This document shows positions 37,417 to 45,087 of a stretch of 64,000 bases of DNA, in pieces. Source of the DNA: Chitinophagaceae bacterium (lineage in GTDB: Bacteria > Bacteroidota > Bacteroidia > Chitinophagales > Chitinophagaceae); NCBI GenBank assembly GCA_022843585.1, contig JALHNJ010000001.1, forward strand, positions 682,001-746,000, read 5' to 3'. Position 1 is the first letter of the stretch. Each line of letters opens with the position of its first letter. A program made the position numbers and the translations under genes. The notes below the pieces were generated by a model. The model was not told the DNA's origin and ran no database searches. It worked only from the letters and a program-made list of their open reading frames with translations.

Positions 37417-39234
37417 TTATTCCTTGCTAAAATAACGTACTACCAACTTGGCTTTTGCAATGCCTATTACTTTTCCAATTTCAATTTCACCTTTCCCTTC
37501 TCTAATAACTTCTCTGATATTTTTAATAGACCTAAATTCTTTCAATAACTGGTCGGCTGTTGCTACTCCAATACCCGGTATACCTTCCAGTTCATTCTTA
37601 AAAGTGCCCTTACTACGTTTAGCCCGGTGGAAAGTAATGCCAAAGCGATGCACCTCATCCCGGATACGGCGAATGAACTTTAAACTGCTGCTGTTGTAAG
37701 GCAGTTTAAGTGATTCTTTATCTCCGGCAAAGAATATTTCTTCTTCATTTTTAGCAAGCCCTACTACGGTTGTTCTTCCGCCTACATCCAATTCATCTAT
37801 AGCTTCCATAGCGGCGCTTAACTGGCCTTTTCCGCCATCTATTATAACTAACTGCGGAAAAGGCTGCACTTCCTCCTGTAGCCTTTTATAGCGACGAAAA
37901 ACCGCTTCTTTCATGGTGGCAAAATCATTAATGCCTTCCACCGCTTTTACATTAAAATGGCGATAATCTTTTTTACTGGGTATTCCATCTTTAAAACAAA
38001 CCATGGCAGATACCGGGTAGCTTCCCTGGAAGTTGGAATTGTCGAAACACTCAATATGTACGGGAGTTTCTTGTAGCTGCAAATCTTTTTGAACCTGTAT
38101 TAAAAGTTGCAGCTTGTCGGCGTTTTTATCATCCAGGCGAAGCCGTTCTTTGTTCTTCAATTCGTCCATAAAATGCTGCACATTTTTTTCTGCCAATTGA
38201 AGCAATTTTTTTCTATCACCTCCTGTGGGAACAGTTACTTTTAACTCCACCGCCGGATAATCAATTGAAAACGGAACTACAATTTCTTTGGCATCACTAT
38301 TAAATGTGGTTCTTAGTTGTGCTATAGAAAAACTAAGAATTTCTTCCACCGATTCATCCAGGTGAGTTTCTACTTTATTGGTTTGTGTTTGTATAATGGC
38401 GCCATTTCTAACCATCAGATAATTGACCCAGGCCGTATCAAGCTCTTTTAAAATATAGAAAACATCCAGGTCGCCGGCTTTTGCATTGGCAACTACGGAG
38501 CGGGATTGGTAATTTTCGAGATAATCAATTTTCTTTTTTACCAGCTCAGCTTTTTCAAATTCCATAGAAACTGCTTGTTGTTTCATCTCCTCTTTAAAAT
38601 GGCGAATAACAGCTGTAAGATTTCCCCGCAAAAGATTCTTTAGCTGTGCTATATTTTTGTCATAATCTTCCAGGATTTGGAAACCCTCACAGGGGCCTTT
38701 GCAGTTGCCCAAATGATATTCCAGACACACTTTAAATTTCTTTTTTTGAATGTTCGACTCAGTAAGATTAAGCGTACAGTTACGAAGCTGTATTGTTTGC
38801 TTAATGAACATAAGCAGTTCTCTCACTCTTTTCACAGATGTATAAGGACCGAGATATTCAGAGCCGTCTTCTATTTTATTTCTTGTCAGATAGACTCGGG
38901 GAAAAGGTTCTTTTTTTATAACGATATATGGGTAGGTTTTATCATCCTTCAGATTAATATTAAATCTCGGCTGAAATTGCTTGATCAATGTGTTTTCTAA
39001 TAGAAATGCGTCCTGCTCTGAATTGACGATTGTAAACTCTATACGGGCTATGCGTTGTACCAGCTCATGTGTTTTGTAACTGGTAAACGTTTTAGAAAAA
39101 TATGAGCCCACTCTTTTTCGAAGATGTTTGGCTTTTCCTACATACAATAACTGGTCGGCAGTATCATAGTATTTATAAATACCAGGCTGTGTTGGAATAG
39201 TAGATGCTATATGTTGAAACTCTGCAGGAGTCAT
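37417..39234 (-). CDS. uvrC: Excinuclease ABC subunit C
   Basis: Nuclease that makes the 3' and 5' incisions in nucleotide excision repair after UvrAB loading. The N-terminal GIY-YIG domain reads QPGIYKYYDTADQLLYVGKA. A UvrB-interaction segment (AVSMEFEKAELVKKKIDYLE) follows. The RNase H-like nuclease domain (HIECFDNSNFQGSYPVSAMV, IDGGKGQLSAA) and C-terminal helix-hairpin-helix (LEGIPGIGVATADQLLKEF) complete it. The 605-residue length is full. Its ATG overlaps the stop of the upstream lipoprotein gene by 4 bases (ATGA), so the two are translationally coupled. Confidence 0.95.
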   Translation of the reverse strand: MTPAEFQHIASTIPTQPGIYKYYDTADQLLYVGKAKHLRKRVGSYFSKTFTSYKTHELVQRIARIEFTIVNSEQDAFLLENTLIKQFQPRFNINLKDDKTYPYIVIKKEPFPRVYLTRNKIEDGSEYLGPYTSVKRVRELLMFIKQTIQLRNCTLNLTESNIQKKKFKVCLEYHLGNCKGPCEGFQILEDYDKNIAQLKNLLRGNLTAVIRHFKEEMKQQAVSMEFEKAELVKKKIDYLENYQSRSVVANAKAGDLDVFYILKELDTAWVNYLMVRNGAIIQTQTNKVETHLDESVEEILSFSIAQLRTTFNSDAKEIVVPFSIDYPAVELKVTVPTGGDRKKLLQLAEKNVQHFMDELKNKERLRLDDKNADKLQLLIQVQKDLQLQETPVHIECFDNSNFQGSYPVSAMVCFKDGIPSKKDYRHFNVKAVEGINDFATMKEAVFRRYKRLQEEVQPFPQLVIIDGGKGQLSAAMEAIDELDVGGRTTVVGLAKNEEEIFFAGDKESLKLPYNSSSLKFIRRIRDEVHRFGITFHRAKRSKGTFKNELEGIPGIGVATADQLLKEFRSIKNIREVIREGKGEIEIGKVIGIAKAKLVVRYFSKE

Positions 39235-39809
39235 TCTTGGCTATGATCATTCCAGGTAACCCTGGTAGTAGTAACTATTTCTGGTTTTCCGGGTTGTTGC
39301 GTTGTAGTGGTAATAAGAAAGCTGTGGTCTACTTGCCAAAGCATTTTCTTTTCCAGGTATCCATTTCTGTCACTTTTTACACTTTCAATAATAATGTTAT
39401 TCACTTTATCACCGATGGCAATATTGGGTGTAACCAGTATTTCTTGTTTTTGGATTTCTTCTTTTTCGGGTTTTTGAGGTGTGTAGGTAATAATGACTCT
39501 ATTTAATAGTTCATCAAACCTGGTTTCTTCATTATATCTTTTGGCAATTTTTTGAACGGATAAGTCCGGTATATCCAGAAAATCTTTTGCTTCAGCCCTA
39601 AAATTTTCACGGCTTATATAGAAAGTATCGCTGTGCAGGCTATCTGTTGTAACCACTTTTATAATAGCATATAAAGAAGTATCAATATGTGTAACTTGTT
39701 TTTCAATAAGAGAAAGTACGGAAATGAATTTCTTTGGTTCCCCTTTTTCTTTTCCCTTACAGGATGTAAATAATGTAACAATTGCGAAAATGAATAAAGA
39801 GTTTTTCAT
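39231..39809 (-). CDS. Hypothetical lipoprotein upstream of uvrC
   Basis: A 192-residue exported lipoprotein: signal peptide MKNSLFIFAIVTLFTSC with lipobox Cys17, then a charged KGKEKGEPKK tail and a soluble domain rich in strands (TSLYAIIKVVTTDSLHSDTF type). I do not recognise a family beyond small Bacteroidota lipoproteins. The ATG at 39809 is chosen over an upstream ATG because it places the signal peptide at the terminus. It overlaps uvrC by 4 bases. Confidence 0.65.
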   Translation of the reverse strand: MKNSLFIFAIVTLFTSCKGKEKGEPKKFISVLSLIEKQVTHIDTSLYAIIKVVTTDSLHSDTFYISRENFRAEAKDFLDIPDLSVQKIAKRYNEETRFDELLNRVIITYTPQKPEKEEIQKQEILVTPNIAIGDKVNNIIIESVKSDRNGYLEKKMLWQVDHSFLITTTTQQPGKPEIVTTTRVTWNDHSQE

Positions 39810-39911
39810 GTGTATAAAAATTTCAAAACTTATGTAAGCCATAAAATTAGCGAAAAAAAATCCCGTACTGATTTAACAATACGGGAGATTATAAGCAGTT
39901 TGCCAGGGAAA

Positions 39912-41429
39912 TTATTTATTAATGACTACAGCCACTTTTAATCCATAGTTCATGAGGTGTTCTTTTACAGGGTATTTTTTATAAAAGCTCGATAGCACCT
40001 GGTAGCGAATTTGTGGCCCAATTTTCCAATCTAATTTTTTGGTTGAATATCCTGCAAAAATTTCGAAGCTTGAATTTAAGTTCCAGTCCCGGGTAAGTGA
40101 AGGAAGCTTGGCATAGTTCTTAAAATCAGTGGAAATAATATATGCTCTGTCAATTAACGTGTAAGTTGGTTGAATGGTACCGCCTATTCCCAGGTAACCA
40201 TTATTGGATTTAAGCCGGGCAAGTTTCAACTCTGCACCAATTGGTAATGAAGCTGAAACATAATAATTAGACAGCCAATGTGGTTTTGTATAGCTTTCCT
40301 GGGCTCTATAATTTGTTTGGATAGTAGAAACGGAAGTTCTTCCATATTCGCTGCTCATTGCTATTCTTGCATCTTCCCGTTGGTAAGGATAAGCTTTAAT
40401 ATCATACTTGCTTACGTTTAATTGCAAGCCCGTGGTGAATTTTAAGTTTTTGGAAATTGGAAACCCAATATTGAAACCTGCCTCCAAACCAACATCAGGT
40501 TTGTGGGTAACCACATCATTTATATTTTCATTAATTGAACTGTTGGCAGGAGCATTGTTGGCCTGGGAATTAAGTAAGAAATTTTTATTTTCTGATAGTT
40601 TGCGGTAGCTGATAGTCGGTAAGAAATAAATCTCCCAGGAAGGTTTTCTTTTTTTACCAAGTCTTATATAGCTATTCGTTACACTTTCAATCGTTAAAGG
40701 ATATATGTCATTTTTTTCAACCAATGATTTTTCTTCAGTAGTGATAGATTGCTTTACCTCTTCCTTGCTGTATTCATCACTATCAATAATTGAGATGGAC
40801 AGTTCACTGTTACTTTTTTCAGGTGTTTTGTTTGTTGATGCTAGAGGCAGGACATCTGGTTGGGCAGATGTTACAACAGGGGCAGCTTGTTTTTTTGAAA
40901 TTGCTGCAGCGGCTTTACTATTATTGATTGCAACAGGGGGATGATTAGAAACATTTGTTGCCGTTACGGGTAATTGCAAAACTGGCTCATCTTCAGTCAC
41001 ATTATTTTCAGCGGAGGTGATTAATAAATCAATGGAAGAATTAACCGGCGTGCCAGCATCAGCCAGGAAAAGATTTTCTTGTTGATTGTCCGGTGATGCA
41101 ACAAAAGAAGGCTTATTGTTGATAGCTTTTACCGGAGCAATAACGAGTTCGGGTATTTCATACTCTTGTTCAATAAATTCTTTTGTAGTAGTAGTAACAG
41201 GAGTGCTGGCTAGTTGTTCTTGTTTGCTGGATGGACTGAGAAGCATTATCCAAGTTACAGCGGCCGTAGTAAGTAATAACAAAGAAAGACCTATGCCATA
41301 CCAACGTCTGCGGGTGTGTAAGGTATTATGAATACCATTCCACACCTTTTCCGAAGGAAACATCCGGTATTGGTCAGCACTTTGCTTTACAAACTGCTCA
41401 AAATCCCTGTTATTGAATCTATTTTCCAT
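39912..41429 (-). CDS. Putative envelope-spanning anti-sigma factor (Dma-like)
   Basis: A 505-residue protein with an unusual layout. Residues 1-40 are a cytoplasmic segment (NNRDFEQFVKQSADQYRMFPSEKVWNGI), followed by a basic stretch, a single membrane helix (about 43-65, YGIGLSLLLLTTAAVTWIML) and a long low-complexity, Ser/Thr/Pro-rich periplasmic linker (70-250). The C-terminal 240 residues have beta-barrel character (SWEIYFLPTISYRKL, VGLEAGFNIGFPIS, YLGIGGTIQPTYTL, GPQIRYQVLSSFY). It follows an ECF sigma gene by 33 bases. The design matches the dual-membrane-spanning anti-sigma factors reported in Bacteroides. The anti-sigma role is inferred. Confidence 0.7.
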   Translation of the reverse strand: MENRFNNRDFEQFVKQSADQYRMFPSEKVWNGIHNTLHTRRRWYGIGLSLLLLTTAAVTWIMLLSPSSKQEQLASTPVTTTTKEFIEQEYEIPELVIAPVKAINNKPSFVASPDNQQENLFLADAGTPVNSSIDLLITSAENNVTEDEPVLQLPVTATNVSNHPPVAINNSKAAAAISKKQAAPVVTSAQPDVLPLASTNKTPEKSNSELSISIIDSDEYSKEEVKQSITTEEKSLVEKNDIYPLTIESVTNSYIRLGKKRKPSWEIYFLPTISYRKLSENKNFLLNSQANNAPANSSINENINDVVTHKPDVGLEAGFNIGFPISKNLKFTTGLQLNVSKYDIKAYPYQREDARIAMSSEYGRTSVSTIQTNYRAQESYTKPHWLSNYYVSASLPIGAELKLARLKSNNGYLGIGGTIQPTYTLIDRAYIISTDFKNYAKLPSLTRDWNLNSSFEIFAGYSTKKLDWKIGPQIRYQVLSSFYKKYPVKEHLMNYGLKVAVVINK

Positions 41430-41462
41430 AACACAGCGGTCAGTTTAGGATACGGTTTAAAA

Positions 41463-42044
41463 TCAACGCTGACTAACGGCAGCAAGCCAATCAAATTCAG
41501 TTTTCGGTTTTTGTAATATTCTTTTTCTGATCAAAATATCTTCAAGCATTGCTTTAGCCCTGGTGTACTGGCTTCGGCTGGTGCTTTCTTCTATATCAAG
41601 CATATTCGATATTTCCCGGTGACTATAACCTTCTACAGCGTAGAGGTTCAATACTGTTCTATAACCAATAGGCAACATCCGGATACACTCTACTACTTGT
41701 TTTGCCTGTATAATTGCCGGTACACTATCCTCTCTTACCTGTATTCCCGTTGCATGAATAATATCCACACTCTCATTGAACTTTTTATTCTTTTTCAGGA
41801 TATTGATACAAGTATGTACCACAATCCGTCTTATCCAACCTTCAAATGCACCTCTACTCTCAAAAGTGTGTATCTGCAAAAAAACTTTAATAAATCCTTC
41901 CTGAAGCATATCCTCAGCATCCTCCCGGTTGTGAGCAAATCGATAGCATACAGCCAGCATTTTGGGACTGTACTTATTGTACAATTCCCGCTGTGCGGCG
42001 GCATCATTATTCAAACAACCTCTAAGTATGGCTTCCTCGGTCAT
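41463..42044 (-). CDS. ECF-type RNA polymerase sigma factor
   Basis: Sigma-70 family factor of 193 residues. Region 2 is near 20-85 (AVCYRFAHNREDAEDMLQEGFIKVF, GAFEGWIRRIVVHTCINILKK) and region 4 near 125-180 (LPIGYRTVLNLYAVEGYSHREISNML, STSRSQYTRAKAMLEDIL), written here in parts. It is the first gene of a pair with the envelope-spanning protein, the normal order for a sigma and its regulator. It would respond to an envelope signal carried by that protein. No clear -7 box is visible upstream. Confidence 0.9.
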   Translation of the reverse strand: MTEEAILRGCLNNDAAAQRELYNKYSPKMLAVCYRFAHNREDAEDMLQEGFIKVFLQIHTFESRGAFEGWIRRIVVHTCINILKKNKKFNESVDIIHATGIQVREDSVPAIIQAKQVVECIRMLPIGYRTVLNLYAVEGYSHREISNMLDIEESTSRSQYTRAKAMLEDILIRKRILQKPKTEFDWLAAVSQR

Positions 42045-42269
42045 AATTTACTTTGGCTGCCTGTAATTTAGACATTTTTTTGGAACGAATGCTGCATAGA
42101 AAAGTAAAATTTCAGTAGAGTTCCGATTGTTATTTTTCGCTTGTGGCGGGGATTACAGCGGGTTTATACTATTTGTCTATTCAAGAAGGTTCAAAAAAAA
42201 ATGCTGAAACGGTTGTTTACTGCATTTCTAAAAAAATAGCAAGTGAACAAATTGATACAATATCGGATA

Positions 42270-42836
42270 TCAGGGCTGTGCTTTTTTGCTTTTGCGGAGT
42301 CTTTTTGGGCCATACCAAAGCCACATACCAGTTACGATCAGCATAAAAAGGCTTAGGCCCATAATGACTGTATAGCTTATTTTAACCTGGTCATTACTGG
42401 TGCCAAAAATTTTATCGAGAATGGAACCATCATGAAGTTTTTCAATGAAATCACTTCTTCTTTTTTCTATGACTAATAATTGCCCGGTAGTGCCATCTAA
42501 CTGCAAACCCTGAAAATGATCCTTGAAAGTAAATTTCACAATGCCTTTATCAGGACGTACATCAATTCTATCTACCTCTGTTGAAAGATTTCCCGGAACG
42601 GAGTCTTTCATAAAACGAATAGCATTTTTTTGCAAGCTATCCAAACTTAACCAGGTGCTTAGATCGGCAGATACACCTTTTTTGGTTGGAGCCAACAAAC
42701 CTGTTTGTTTTTTGATACCTAATAATATTCCGGTAATGGAAATAACCAAGAAAAACACAAATAAGAAGATGGCAATTTTTCGATGGAGCCAGCGAAACCA
42801 TCTTATCCATTTTGCTTGTTGCTTAGTATTACTCAT
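42270..42836 (-). CDS. PepSY domain membrane protein
   Basis: PepSY-associated transmembrane protein of 188 residues. The first helix lies near 18-40 (IAIFLFVFFLVISITGILLG) with a basic RWLHRKIA segment before it. A periplasmic PepSY domain (about 60-150) follows, with VRPDKGIVKFTFKDHFQGLQLDG, and a second helix near 160-178 (SYTVIMGLSLFMLIVTGMWLW) ends the protein. Such proteins often accompany TonB-dependent metal receptors and may act as reductases or export helpers. It follows the receptor by 43 bases on the same strand, separated by a hairpin. Confidence 0.78.
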   Translation of the reverse strand: MSNTKQQAKWIRWFRWLHRKIAIFLFVFFLVISITGILLGIKKQTGLLAPTKKGVSADLSTWLSLDSLQKNAIRFMKDSVPGNLSTEVDRIDVRPDKGIVKFTFKDHFQGLQLDGTTGQLLVIEKRRSDFIEKLHDGSILDKIFGTSNDQVKISYTVIMGLSLFMLIVTGMWLWYGPKRLRKSKKAQP

Positions 42837-42848
42837 AAATTAAAAATG

Positions 42849-42873
42849 AAGGCCTGTCCTGCAGACAGGCCTT
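42849..42873 (-). terminator. Hairpin between TonB receptor and PepSY gene
   Basis: AAGGCCTGTC and GACAGGCCTT form a perfect 10-base stem around CTGCA. On the minus strand it is followed by CATTTTT. It may attenuate the downstream PepSY gene. The GGCCTGTC/GACAGGCC core resembles short dispersed palindromes seen in this group. Confidence 0.6.
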
Positions 42874-42879
42874 TGTGAT

Positions 42880-45087
42880 TTAAAGAGATGCTCTTATTGA
42901 AATAATAAAATTAGAACCAGCCGCTACAATACCAGATGAGTATGGACGATAACGCTGACTGGTCATATTTTCCCAACCAGTTGTTATCGCCAGGTTTTTT
43001 ATACCCTGGTAGGATGCTTTTAGATTCAATGTGTACCAATTTGGTGAATAAGGTTTTCCATTTTCATCCTTTGCATAAATATCTGTCTTAGCTTGCTCTG
43101 AGGGAGCCAAATCTTCATTTTTTACCTGGCTGTTGTACATTGCAGAAGCTTCAACAAATATTTTTTTCACCCGGTAGCGTAAGGAAGTGCTTCCATAAAA
43201 AGGTGGAGCATGCCGAAGTGCTACCTGTTCGTTTTTTGTATCATCCGTTTCTTTACCATTTATCCAATTAGCATGGCTGGTCAATGAAAAGTTGCTGGTG
43301 AAGAAAAATTCTGTACTAGCCTGCAATCCCCATACAGTAGCTTTGGCTACATTTTGTAATGCTTCTACACGGCTTAGTACTCCATCAAAAAATATACTGT
43401 CTTCCCCATTAAAAGTTGTGGGGCGACGTACGATAGCATCATTTAAAATGGTATAGAAACTATTCAATTCTATCCGGAATTTATTAGGAATGTTCTTTGA
43501 CAATCCAGCTTCAAAATTCCAGGCATACTCCGGCGTAAGATTCGGATTGGGTACAGTAATGTTTCCGGGTACACTTTCAAACAGTTTGCCAATATCGTCC
43601 ACATTCGGCATACGATAACCGGTGGAGATATTTCCATTCAATTGCCAGCCTGCTGCCGGACGAAATACCAACCCTGCATTACTCGTTAATGCACCATCTT
43701 TCAACTCGGCTTTTTCATAAGGGAAGTTGATGAAAGTAGTAACAAATTTGGCATCCAATGTATTATAGCTATACCGCAAGCCTGTAACTAAAGTGAGTTT
43801 TGGTTGCACATTGATCTTGTAGCTACCATACACACCCATTGTGTTCCATGTGCTACCATCCGGATACCTGCTTACATAGGGAGTGACGGCATTGGTAGAA
43901 ATATTTGTCCTCTCTCCAAACGATCCAACTTTGTTGTGTACATACTCAACCCCATAAAACAATTGCCCTTTACCAATACCTTTGGTAGCATCCCAGTTGG
44001 CACATATAGCATCAACCTGTTCAATTTGTTTGTTACGGTTATTGTTGTTCCTGGTTCGGTCAATGCGGCTTTCTTCATAATTCTGATACGCAAGCGTAAA
44101 ACGGGCATCATCATAAATGCTTGTTTTTTTGCTGTGCATGATCTGAAGGTTGTGCATTCTCCAAAGCATAGGGCCGTAATACCATTCAGCAAAACGAAGT
44201 GCCCCATTCCGGTATTGAATCAACCGGTCGTATCTTGGGGCATCTCCTGTGCCAGCATACGTAAAACTGTATTGCATGTCCCAATATTGATTTGGCTTGA
44301 AACGAATTTTTTGTAAAAAATTTGTTTGTTTGTAGCCACTAAAATGTTGAATACGGGGGTCTGTATTTTGTACAATTACATCTGCATTGTTTTGCCGTTC
44401 TACATATTCTGGTCGCAGGTAACTATCCTGCCCGCCATTTTTCCCCATTTTTAAATCATCAAAATCACTGAATGAAAAAGAAGTAAGAAAAGACCATTTT
44501 TTGAAACCCACATTGATGTCGGCGTGGATGGTTTTTTCTTTATTGGCAGTTGAATAGCGACTGATAAGATTGCCTTTCACTAATACTTCGCTGTCTTTCG
44601 CAAATTGTGCATTCAATGTATGAAAATCCATAACACCACCAATGGCATCACTTCCATAAATAAGTGAGCCGGGGCCAAAAACCACTTCAGCAGTTTCTGT
44701 ACTTAATGGATCAATGCTAATTACATTCTGCAAATTGCCACTACGGTAGATGGCATTGTTCATACGAACACCATCTATCACCAACAGCACACGATTGGTA
44801 GCAAACCCACGTATCATGGGGCTTCCTCCTCCCAATTGGCTTTTTTGAATGTAAACGGTTCCTGTTTGCCCTAATAGATCAGCAGAAGTTTGAGGATTGT
44901 TTCTCAAAATATCAGGCCTGTTAATTTTGACAATTTTGTTAGGAACCTCATTTAATTTTTGTTCCCATTTATTTACGGAAACAATTACTTCACCCATTGT
45001 TTTTTCTGCCAGTGTATCTTGTTGAGTATAGCCGCATACTGATATGCACATAACGCATAACAGAGCAAGCACATACTTATTGCTCAT
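42880..45087 (-). CDS. TonB-dependent receptor of a haem/metal operon
   Basis: Outer membrane receptor of 735 residues. A signal peptide (LALLCVMCISVCGYTQ) is followed by a TonB-box-like VIVSVNKWEQ and a plug with GGGSPMIRGFATNRVLLVIDG and TAEVVFGPGSLIYGSDAIGG in parts. The MIRGFATNRVLLVIDGVRMN pattern resembles the haemoglobin/haem and copper receptor subgroup. The barrel ends with NFIISIRASL. It is transcribed after the Cys-Cys-tailed membrane protein gene (38 bases) and before the PepSY gene. Substrate is inferred as haem, iron or copper. Confidence 0.85.
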   Translation of the reverse strand: MSNKYVLALLCVMCISVCGYTQQDTLAEKTMGEVIVSVNKWEQKLNEVPNKIVKINRPDILRNNPQTSADLLGQTGTVYIQKSQLGGGSPMIRGFATNRVLLVIDGVRMNNAIYRSGNLQNVISIDPLSTETAEVVFGPGSLIYGSDAIGGVMDFHTLNAQFAKDSEVLVKGNLISRYSTANKEKTIHADINVGFKKWSFLTSFSFSDFDDLKMGKNGGQDSYLRPEYVERQNNADVIVQNTDPRIQHFSGYKQTNFLQKIRFKPNQYWDMQYSFTYAGTGDAPRYDRLIQYRNGALRFAEWYYGPMLWRMHNLQIMHSKKTSIYDDARFTLAYQNYEESRIDRTRNNNNRNKQIEQVDAICANWDATKGIGKGQLFYGVEYVHNKVGSFGERTNISTNAVTPYVSRYPDGSTWNTMGVYGSYKINVQPKLTLVTGLRYSYNTLDAKFVTTFINFPYEKAELKDGALTSNAGLVFRPAAGWQLNGNISTGYRMPNVDDIGKLFESVPGNITVPNPNLTPEYAWNFEAGLSKNIPNKFRIELNSFYTILNDAIVRRPTTFNGEDSIFFDGVLSRVEALQNVAKATVWGLQASTEFFFTSNFSLTSHANWINGKETDDTKNEQVALRHAPPFYGSTSLRYRVKKIFVEASAMYNSQVKNEDLAPSEQAKTDIYAKDENGKPYSPNWYTLNLKASYQGIKNLAITTGWENMTSQRYRPYSSGIVAAGSNFIISIRASL

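What the first reader, a model, noticed from the sequence alone, without database searches (positions are those of the whole stretch)
39912..42044. Sigma factor paired with a likely dual-membrane-spanning anti-sigma factor
The 505-residue protein joins a short cytoplasmic N terminus, one inner-membrane helix, a long disordered periplasmic linker and a C-terminal domain that reads like an outer membrane beta-barrel, and it follows an ECF sigma gene. This matches the dual-membrane-spanning anti-sigma (Dma) proteins reported in Bacteroides thetaiotaomicron, where they influence vesiculation. A single chain crossing both membranes would sense outer membrane state directly. The barrel reading is by eye.
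Basis: partly seen in the sequence, partly recalled or inferred. Interest (0 to 1): 0.75.

Follow-up and report, generated by a model that had tools for sequence, protein, structure and literature searches.

The report
Anti-sigma factor spanning both membranes
In this bacterium one protein appears to run from the cell interior through both membranes, with an outer membrane barrel at one end and the brake of a gene switch at the other, as already reported for gut Bacteroides; the new part is how common the brake is in related bacteria, and that some of them carry brake and barrel as separate neighbouring genes.

Summary
On the minus strand an ECF sigma gene (42044-41463) precedes a 505-residue protein (41429-39912): 45 cytoplasmic residues, one inner-membrane helix, a ~200-residue unconserved disordered linker and an all-beta C-terminal domain, confidently modelled, whose solved-structure matches are outer membrane barrels. 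Strand residues alternate polar/apolar far beyond shuffles. 42 of 43 fetched relatives have the sigma gene directly upstream; the other is truncated. Anatomy matches the Dma/Reo anti-sigma factors of Bacteroides and Phocaeicola; homology to those and ECF21 membership were untestable, and the sigma/anti-sigma fold was uninformative. New here: (1) a promoter-like site, GCAGC-N16-TGTCTA or a near form, before the sigma start in 38 of 43 loci; (2) the 45-residue head matches 130 of 395 genomes of the phylum, 91 at stricter cut-off; (3) of 20 short, barrel-less versions, 19 have a separate secreted protein encoded directly downstream, 12 of which match an outer membrane barrel family. Verdict: real, probably a new member of a known kind.

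The parts
41463..42044 (-). ECF sigma factor, 193 aa
   Evidence: Pfam Sigma70_r2 9.6e-18 and Sigma70_r4_2 5.3e-13; NCBIfam sigma70-ECF 1.1e-24
39912..41429 (-). Dma-like anti-sigma factor, 505 aa
   Evidence: ORF; AlphaFold2 model; 42 of 43 fetched relatives directly behind an ECF sigma gene
41295..41429 (-). residues 1-45: cytoplasmic anti-sigma head with PSxxVWxxI motif
   Evidence: conserved in the family; widened profile matches 130 of 395 genomes of the phylum at E <= 0.01; sigma binding inferred
41238..41294 (-). residues 46-64: inner-membrane helix
   Evidence: mean hydropathy 2.07; helix in the model
40641..41237 (-). residues 65-263: disordered periplasmic linker
   Evidence: pLDDT under 50 for nearly all of 70-243; conservation 0.16 for 65-240, length 104-204 across 43 sequences
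40662..40703 (-). residues 243-256: conserved box, YPLTIESVxNSY in most rows, just before the barrel
   Evidence: I247 and E248 nearly invariant in 43 sequences; role unknown
39912..40640 (-). residues 264-505: outer membrane beta-barrel (8 strands most likely, my count)
   Evidence: Pfam OMP_b-brl_2 only sub-threshold for this protein (E 0.071)
42091..42096 (-). putative -35 element TGCAGC of the sigma operon
   Evidence: 38 of 43 loci carry GCAGC, 16 nt, then TGTCTA or a near form (TG[TC]CTTA), 50-53 nt before the sigma start
42069..42074 (-). putative -10 element TGTCTA of the sigma operon
   Evidence: as above
39861..39886 (-). intrinsic terminator after the anti-sigma gene
   Evidence: 10-pair stem plus eight T; fold z -4.2; strict scan finds one in 15 of 41 relatives
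39231..39842 (-). conserved lipoprotein of unknown function (start probably 39809)
   Evidence: lipobox read by eye; no Pfam family; same place in relatives
37417..39234 (-). uvrC, overlaps the lipoprotein gene by 4 nt; neighbour, probably not part of the switch
   Evidence: NCBIfam TIGR00194 2.8e-147

Best explanation
A sigma/anti-sigma pair in which one chain reaches from the cytoplasm to the outer membrane. The 45-residue head holds the ECF sigma factor at the inner membrane (inferred); a disordered tether crosses the periplasm; the C-terminal barrel sits in the outer membrane as the sensor (barrel fold supported, insertion inferred). When the outer membrane or barrel assembly is disturbed, the barrel's state changes or it fails to insert, the chain is cut or pulled (inferred, most likely stepwise proteolysis), the sigma factor is freed and transcribes its own operon from TGCAGC-N16-TGTCTA, giving positive feedback that also renews the inhibitor (conserved site shown, its use as promoter inferred).
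For: Gene pairing in 42 of 43 loci of the named collection and in all 11 strong barrel hits among 395 genomes of the phylum. Model and fold matches; amphipathic strands; profile match to a stand-alone OMP, hhalign probability 97.4, which Pfam calls OMP_b-brl_2 at 5.1e-14. Linker of at least 104 residues, long enough by contour length (my estimate). Fixed promoter-like site upstream of the sigma gene; the 21 hits of its model at E < 1e-10 in 39 genus genomes (one each in 21 genomes) all lie before this sigma gene, at 43.6-60.5 bits. Split operons with a separate downstream barrel suggest that head and barrel work together. Published: the P. vulgatus sigma gene of this type rises 33-fold on exposure to an envelope-active toxin, and anti-sigma loss turns on its regulon (PMC9308784 passages).
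Against: No direct evidence of sigma binding: the read-through co-fold had pLDDT 57 and pTM 0.31. The head is far shorter than the four-helix class I anti-sigma domain (PMC7406223 passages). The window's barrel is only sub-threshold in Pfam (E 0.071), and its family profile does not significantly match the barrels of nine other fused proteins (hhalign 42%). The promoter model was built from such loci and finds them again, 18 of the 39 genomes have no strong hit, and it may miss other targets; one-mismatch hits of the core pattern are at control level. Five of 43 loci lack the site. 7 of the 19 downstream proteins of split loci have no barrel match.
Confidence: 0.75

Rival explanations
1. The chain is made as one protein but cut soon after export (for example by signal peptidase behind the helix), leaving an inner-membrane anti-sigma stub and a free barrel; it does not span both membranes at steady state.
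For: The split operons show that head and barrel can be separate molecules. Site-1 cleavage of an anti-sigma factor by signal peptidase is published for RsiP (title and start of abstract in the listing).
Against: Head and barrel stay fused, with a length-conserved head, in the window and 42 aligned relatives, though the search that found them favoured fused forms; no cleavage site was tested for.
Confidence: 0.15
2. An ordinary inner-membrane anti-sigma factor with a soluble periplasmic beta domain.
For: Pfam does not call the domain at threshold; barrel closure was not measured.
Against: Fold matches are outer membrane barrels; amphipathic alternation; profile match to a stand-alone OMP with a signal-peptide-like start.
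Confidence: 0.06
3. FecI/FecR-type cell-surface signalling with the TonB-dependent receptor just upstream (45087-42880) as transducer.
For: A TonB-type receptor lies upstream here, and by eye a receptor-like C terminus lies just upstream in many relatives.
Against: The receptor's plug begins at residue 45 and Pfam reports no N-terminal signalling domain; the sigma gene has its own conserved upstream site; the anti-sigma factor carries its own barrel.
Confidence: 0.04

Closest known systems
[quoted passage not shown] PMC13088901: abstract, introduction, discussion, passages and part of the reference list read; the founding PNAS paper was not held)
   Same: Order of parts: N-terminal anti-sigma head, one TM helix, long disordered tether, C-terminal barrel; cognate ECF sigma gene adjacent.
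   Different: Chitinophagaceae; ECF21 membership and homology to Bt Dma untested; no nigD-family protein among the neighbours scanned with Pfam; next to a conserved lipoprotein and uvrC; vesiculation untested.
EcfO-Reo (Bacteroides fragilis, Phocaeicola vulgatus; PMC9308784 and PMC13114119, passages read)
   Same: ECF sigma with a large anti-sigma factor that spans the periplasm and ends in an outer membrane barrel; sigma gene strongly induced under envelope attack, in line with autoregulation.
   Different: Regulon and trigger unknown here.
FecI-FecR-FecA cell-surface signalling (recalled; only search listings seen)
   Same: An outer membrane barrel informs an inner-membrane anti-sigma factor.
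   Different: There the barrel is a separate TonB-dependent receptor; here it is fused to the anti-sigma factor.
Class I anti-sigma factors (ASDI; PMC7406223, passages read)
   Same: N-terminal cytoplasmic sigma-holding part before a TM helix.
   Different: ASDI has four helices; here only about 45 residues, with one separate helix before the one that runs on into the membrane.

Membership tests
Dma | single TM helix behind a short cytoplasmic N terminus | tested here: met
Dma | long intrinsically disordered periplasmic tether | tested here: met
   pLDDT under 50 for nearly all of 70-243; unconserved, 104-204 residues
Dma | C-terminal outer membrane beta-barrel | tested here: met
   by prediction and comparison; closure and insertion not measured
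Dma | adjacent cognate ECF sigma gene | tested here: met
   window, and 42 of 43 loci
Dma | sigma factor belongs to group ECF21 | not testable with these tools
   no ECF group models at hand; of the 25 NCBIfam rows shown (of 102) only the general ECF model is above its cut-off
Dma | N-terminal domain binds and inhibits the sigma factor | tested here: inconclusive
   read-through co-fold poor
Dma | sequence homology to Bt Dma1-3 | not testable with these tools
Dma | loss raises vesicle production | not testable with these tools
   bench experiment
Class I anti-sigma domain (ASDI) | four-helix anti-sigma domain | tested here: not met
   by the model: 45 residues before the membrane, one separate helix 7-20
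FecIR/TonB cell-surface signalling | receptor with N-terminal signalling domain | tested here: not met
   upstream receptor: plug 45-152 and barrel, no signalling domain in Pfam at E <= 1

The most novel reading that the evidence does not exclude
One sensing principle in two builds runs through a large part of the Bacteroidota: a 45-residue anti-sigma head that is either fused to an outer membrane barrel (Dma build) or encoded beside a separate barrel (split build). The split build would mean that the barrel is the sensor and that physical spanning by one chain is optional, so the signal can pass by barrel-to-anti-sigma contact in the periplasm.
Probability: 0.4. Interest if true: 0.68.

Novelty: new member of a known kind. 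Interest (0 to 1): 0.52.

Why it matters
How Bacteroidota sense outer membrane damage is largely open; only 6% of their ECF genes have a class I anti-sigma neighbour (PMC7406223 passage). This locus carries the Dma design, known from gut Bacteroides, into Chitinophagaceae, gives it a concrete testable promoter site, and through the split operons offers a way to test whether the barrel or the tether carries the signal.

Tried and rejected
Sigma/anti-sigma complex by AlphaFold2: in the window the two genes are in frame, so I read through the intergenic stops (window plus 15 loci paired; sigma-only and head-only rows of 17 further loci). The model was too poor to use and counts neither way.

Regulon search: the core pattern TGCAGC-N16-TGTCTAA with up to one mismatch gave 3 places in the own genome against 2 for the control pattern, only the operon's own being exact. 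A sequence-only model over 39 genus genomes gave 43.6-60.5 bits at the operon in 21 genomes; of the rows listed (the list was cut) no place other than the sigma operon exceeds 21.2 bits. So I propose autoregulation only; the model was built from these operons and may be too narrow for other targets.

Barrel homology to nine fused proteins found with the head profile (A9): not significant. A second barrel protein behind an ECF gene in the same family matches (hhalign 96.9). Barrel profile across 395 genomes of the phylum: 13 have a match, 11 strong (E < 1e-50), all in the window's family (11 of its 14 genomes); of three weak places, two (L118, L119) look like stand-alone OMPs and one (L120) is that second pair.

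Widened head profile (A7): 130 of 395 genomes at E <= 0.01, but weak hits can match only the TM part (the own genome's second hit, E 0.0029, covers positions 37-73). By hand count, with best E <= 1e-6: 86 of 98 genomes of the window's class and 5 of 297 outside it, 91 of 395 in all. Of the 63 listed matches with E < 1e-12 (hand count), 46 have open frames of 390 aa or more, 16 of 288 or less, one of 334. I chose 20 short loci from the listed matches myself; one (L177) lacks a downstream barrel candidate. Of the other 19 downstream proteins 10 pass the Pfam OMP_b-brl_2 cut-off, 2 fall just below it and 7 have no OMP match. That they are secreted is read from an N-terminal hydrophobic stretch.

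An operon running on into lipoprotein and uvrC was considered and played down: a strong terminator follows the anti-sigma gene in the window; a strict scan found one in 15 of 41 relatives scanned (L035 and L054 left out), while in several of the others the genes almost abut (heuristic starts).

Full report
What is there. On the minus strand an ECF sigma gene (42044-41463, 193 aa) is followed after 33 nt by a 505-aa protein (41429-39912), then a terminator (39886-39861), a lipoprotein gene (39842-39231) and uvrC (39234-37417; NCBIfam TIGR00194 2.8e-147). The 505-aa protein has no Pfam or NCBIfam match above cut-off; the only Pfam row at E <= 1 is a sub-threshold outer membrane barrel family, OMP_b-brl_2, E 0.071.

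Anatomy. In an alignment of the window protein with 42 relatives (the 43 loci minus truncated L054), the head before the membrane is 44-45 residues long in every row, the linker varies from 104 to 204 residues with column conservation 0.16, and the C-terminal domain is 237-246 residues long and well conserved. A box just before the barrel, YPLTIESVxNSY in most rows, is also conserved. AlphaFold2 gives helices 7-20 and 27-63, disorder through most of the linker and a mostly confident all-beta C-terminal domain. Foldseek matches are outer membrane barrels: OpcA, OmpA, NspA, OmpW, Pla and OmpT are among the first 17 rows; overlaps are loose (rmsd 7 and more), so they tell the fold class only. From the strand list I read 8 transmembrane strands with long outer loops at 281-308, 346-383, 429-448 and 478-487; this count is mine, and closure was not measured. 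Apolar residues alternate along the model's strands (0 of 5000 within-strand shuffles reach the family value). The barrel family matches a stand-alone OMP, L119, which starts with a signal-peptide-like stretch (by eye) and is OMP_b-brl_2 at 5.1e-14.

Conservation. 33 of 35 searched genomes of the genus have a match, some only partial, and none of 23 from other families of the order. In the named collection 43 loci were found, with titles mostly Chitinophagaceae or broader names; 42 have the sigma gene directly upstream. Across 395 genomes of the phylum the barrel profile has 11 strong matches, all in the window's family (11 of 14 genomes), and all 11 lie behind a sigma gene and before a lipoprotein-like gene and a uvrC-like gene (the last two named by eye). 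In the own genome the head profile finds this locus at E 3.3e-26 and next 0.0029, so it is the only one of its kind there that I can see.

Promoter. Upstream of the sigma gene, 38 of 43 loci (window plus 42) carry GCAGC, exactly 16 nt, then TGTCTA or a near form, 50-53 nt before the start codon; the five without it (L061, L065, L068, L071, L072) share a different upstream region by eye. By eye, GCAGC-N16-TGTC is also present in 6 of 8 loci from other genera of the family printed. Spacing and GTC core look like an ECF promoter (recalled), and a CGT box marks ECF-type promoters in Flavobacterium psychrophilum (PMC9723704 passages). A sequence model of 53 positions, built from 25 of these loci, has strong hits (E < 1e-10) in 21 of 39 genus genomes, one each, all just before this sigma gene. 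I infer autoregulation; the published 33-fold induction of the P. vulgatus sigma gene under toxin agrees with that.

Wider family. The head alone, searched as a profile, matches 39 of 395 genomes of the phylum, and after one round of widening 130 of 395, or 91 at E <= 1e-6 (the second by hand count). P25 and W30 are nearly invariant; the signature is P-S-x-x-V-W-x-x-I, then a basic stretch and a TM helix. Many matches are long proteins directly behind ECF genes. Six long ones were scanned, five of them with an ECF gene visible upstream (for L136 it was hidden in my listing): all six show an outer membrane barrel family at E < 1e-4, three above cut-off. Others are short, about 160-290 aa. Of 20 short loci fetched, 19 have a protein with an N-terminal hydrophobic stretch encoded directly downstream, and 12 of those 19 match OMP_b-brl_2, 10 above cut-off; 7 do not match. 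The same head therefore occurs with a barrel fused or next door, the usual sign that two parts act together. I did not find this split arrangement described in the listings and passages that my searches gave, which cover open-licence papers only.

How it most likely works. Shown: gene pairing, anatomy, barrel-type fold by prediction, conserved upstream site. Inferred: the head holds the sigma factor, the barrel inserts in the outer membrane and senses its state or its own assembly, and disturbance leads to release of the sigma factor, probably by proteolysis, and to autoactivation. Trigger and release rest on analogy with Reo and Dma.

Known or new. It is built and, as far as can be seen, works like Dma/Reo. 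Four defining features were tested and met and none was tested and failed; sigma binding is inconclusive, and ECF21 membership, sequence homology to Bt Dma and the vesicle phenotype could not be tested. I file it as a probable new member of a known kind; the split operons may deserve the name of a new variant, but they are not in the window.

Noticed in passing
L074:401-1444 (own genome, G000:C1:1312864-1313904; not in the window): Another ECF gene's partner, 347 aa, carries four tandem repeats of about 32 residues, each with (P/A)P-x-x-x-W-x-x-I-(A/V)-A-(E/N)-L-D-E, akin to the motif seen once in the window protein, before a single TM helix. Matches at E < 1e-34 in 21 of 58 genomes searched, own included, all in the genus; repeat number there not checked. 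Could hold several sigma molecules at once.
   Followed up: partly
L120:469-1935: A second Dma-like protein (488 aa, OMP_b-brl_2 6.6e-7) behind an ECF gene in the same family, in a genome that also has the ortholog of the window locus.
   Followed up: partly
39231-39842: Conserved lipoprotein without any Pfam family, kept between the anti-sigma gene and uvrC across the family.
   Followed up: partly
40662-40703: Conserved box YPLTIESVxNSY at the linker-barrel junction, modelled with low confidence; possible protease, chaperone or barrel-lumen site.
   Followed up: no
42270-45087: PepSY-type membrane protein and TonB-dependent receptor genes just upstream of the sigma operon; by eye, receptor-like C termini lie at the same place in many relatives.
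   Followed up: no
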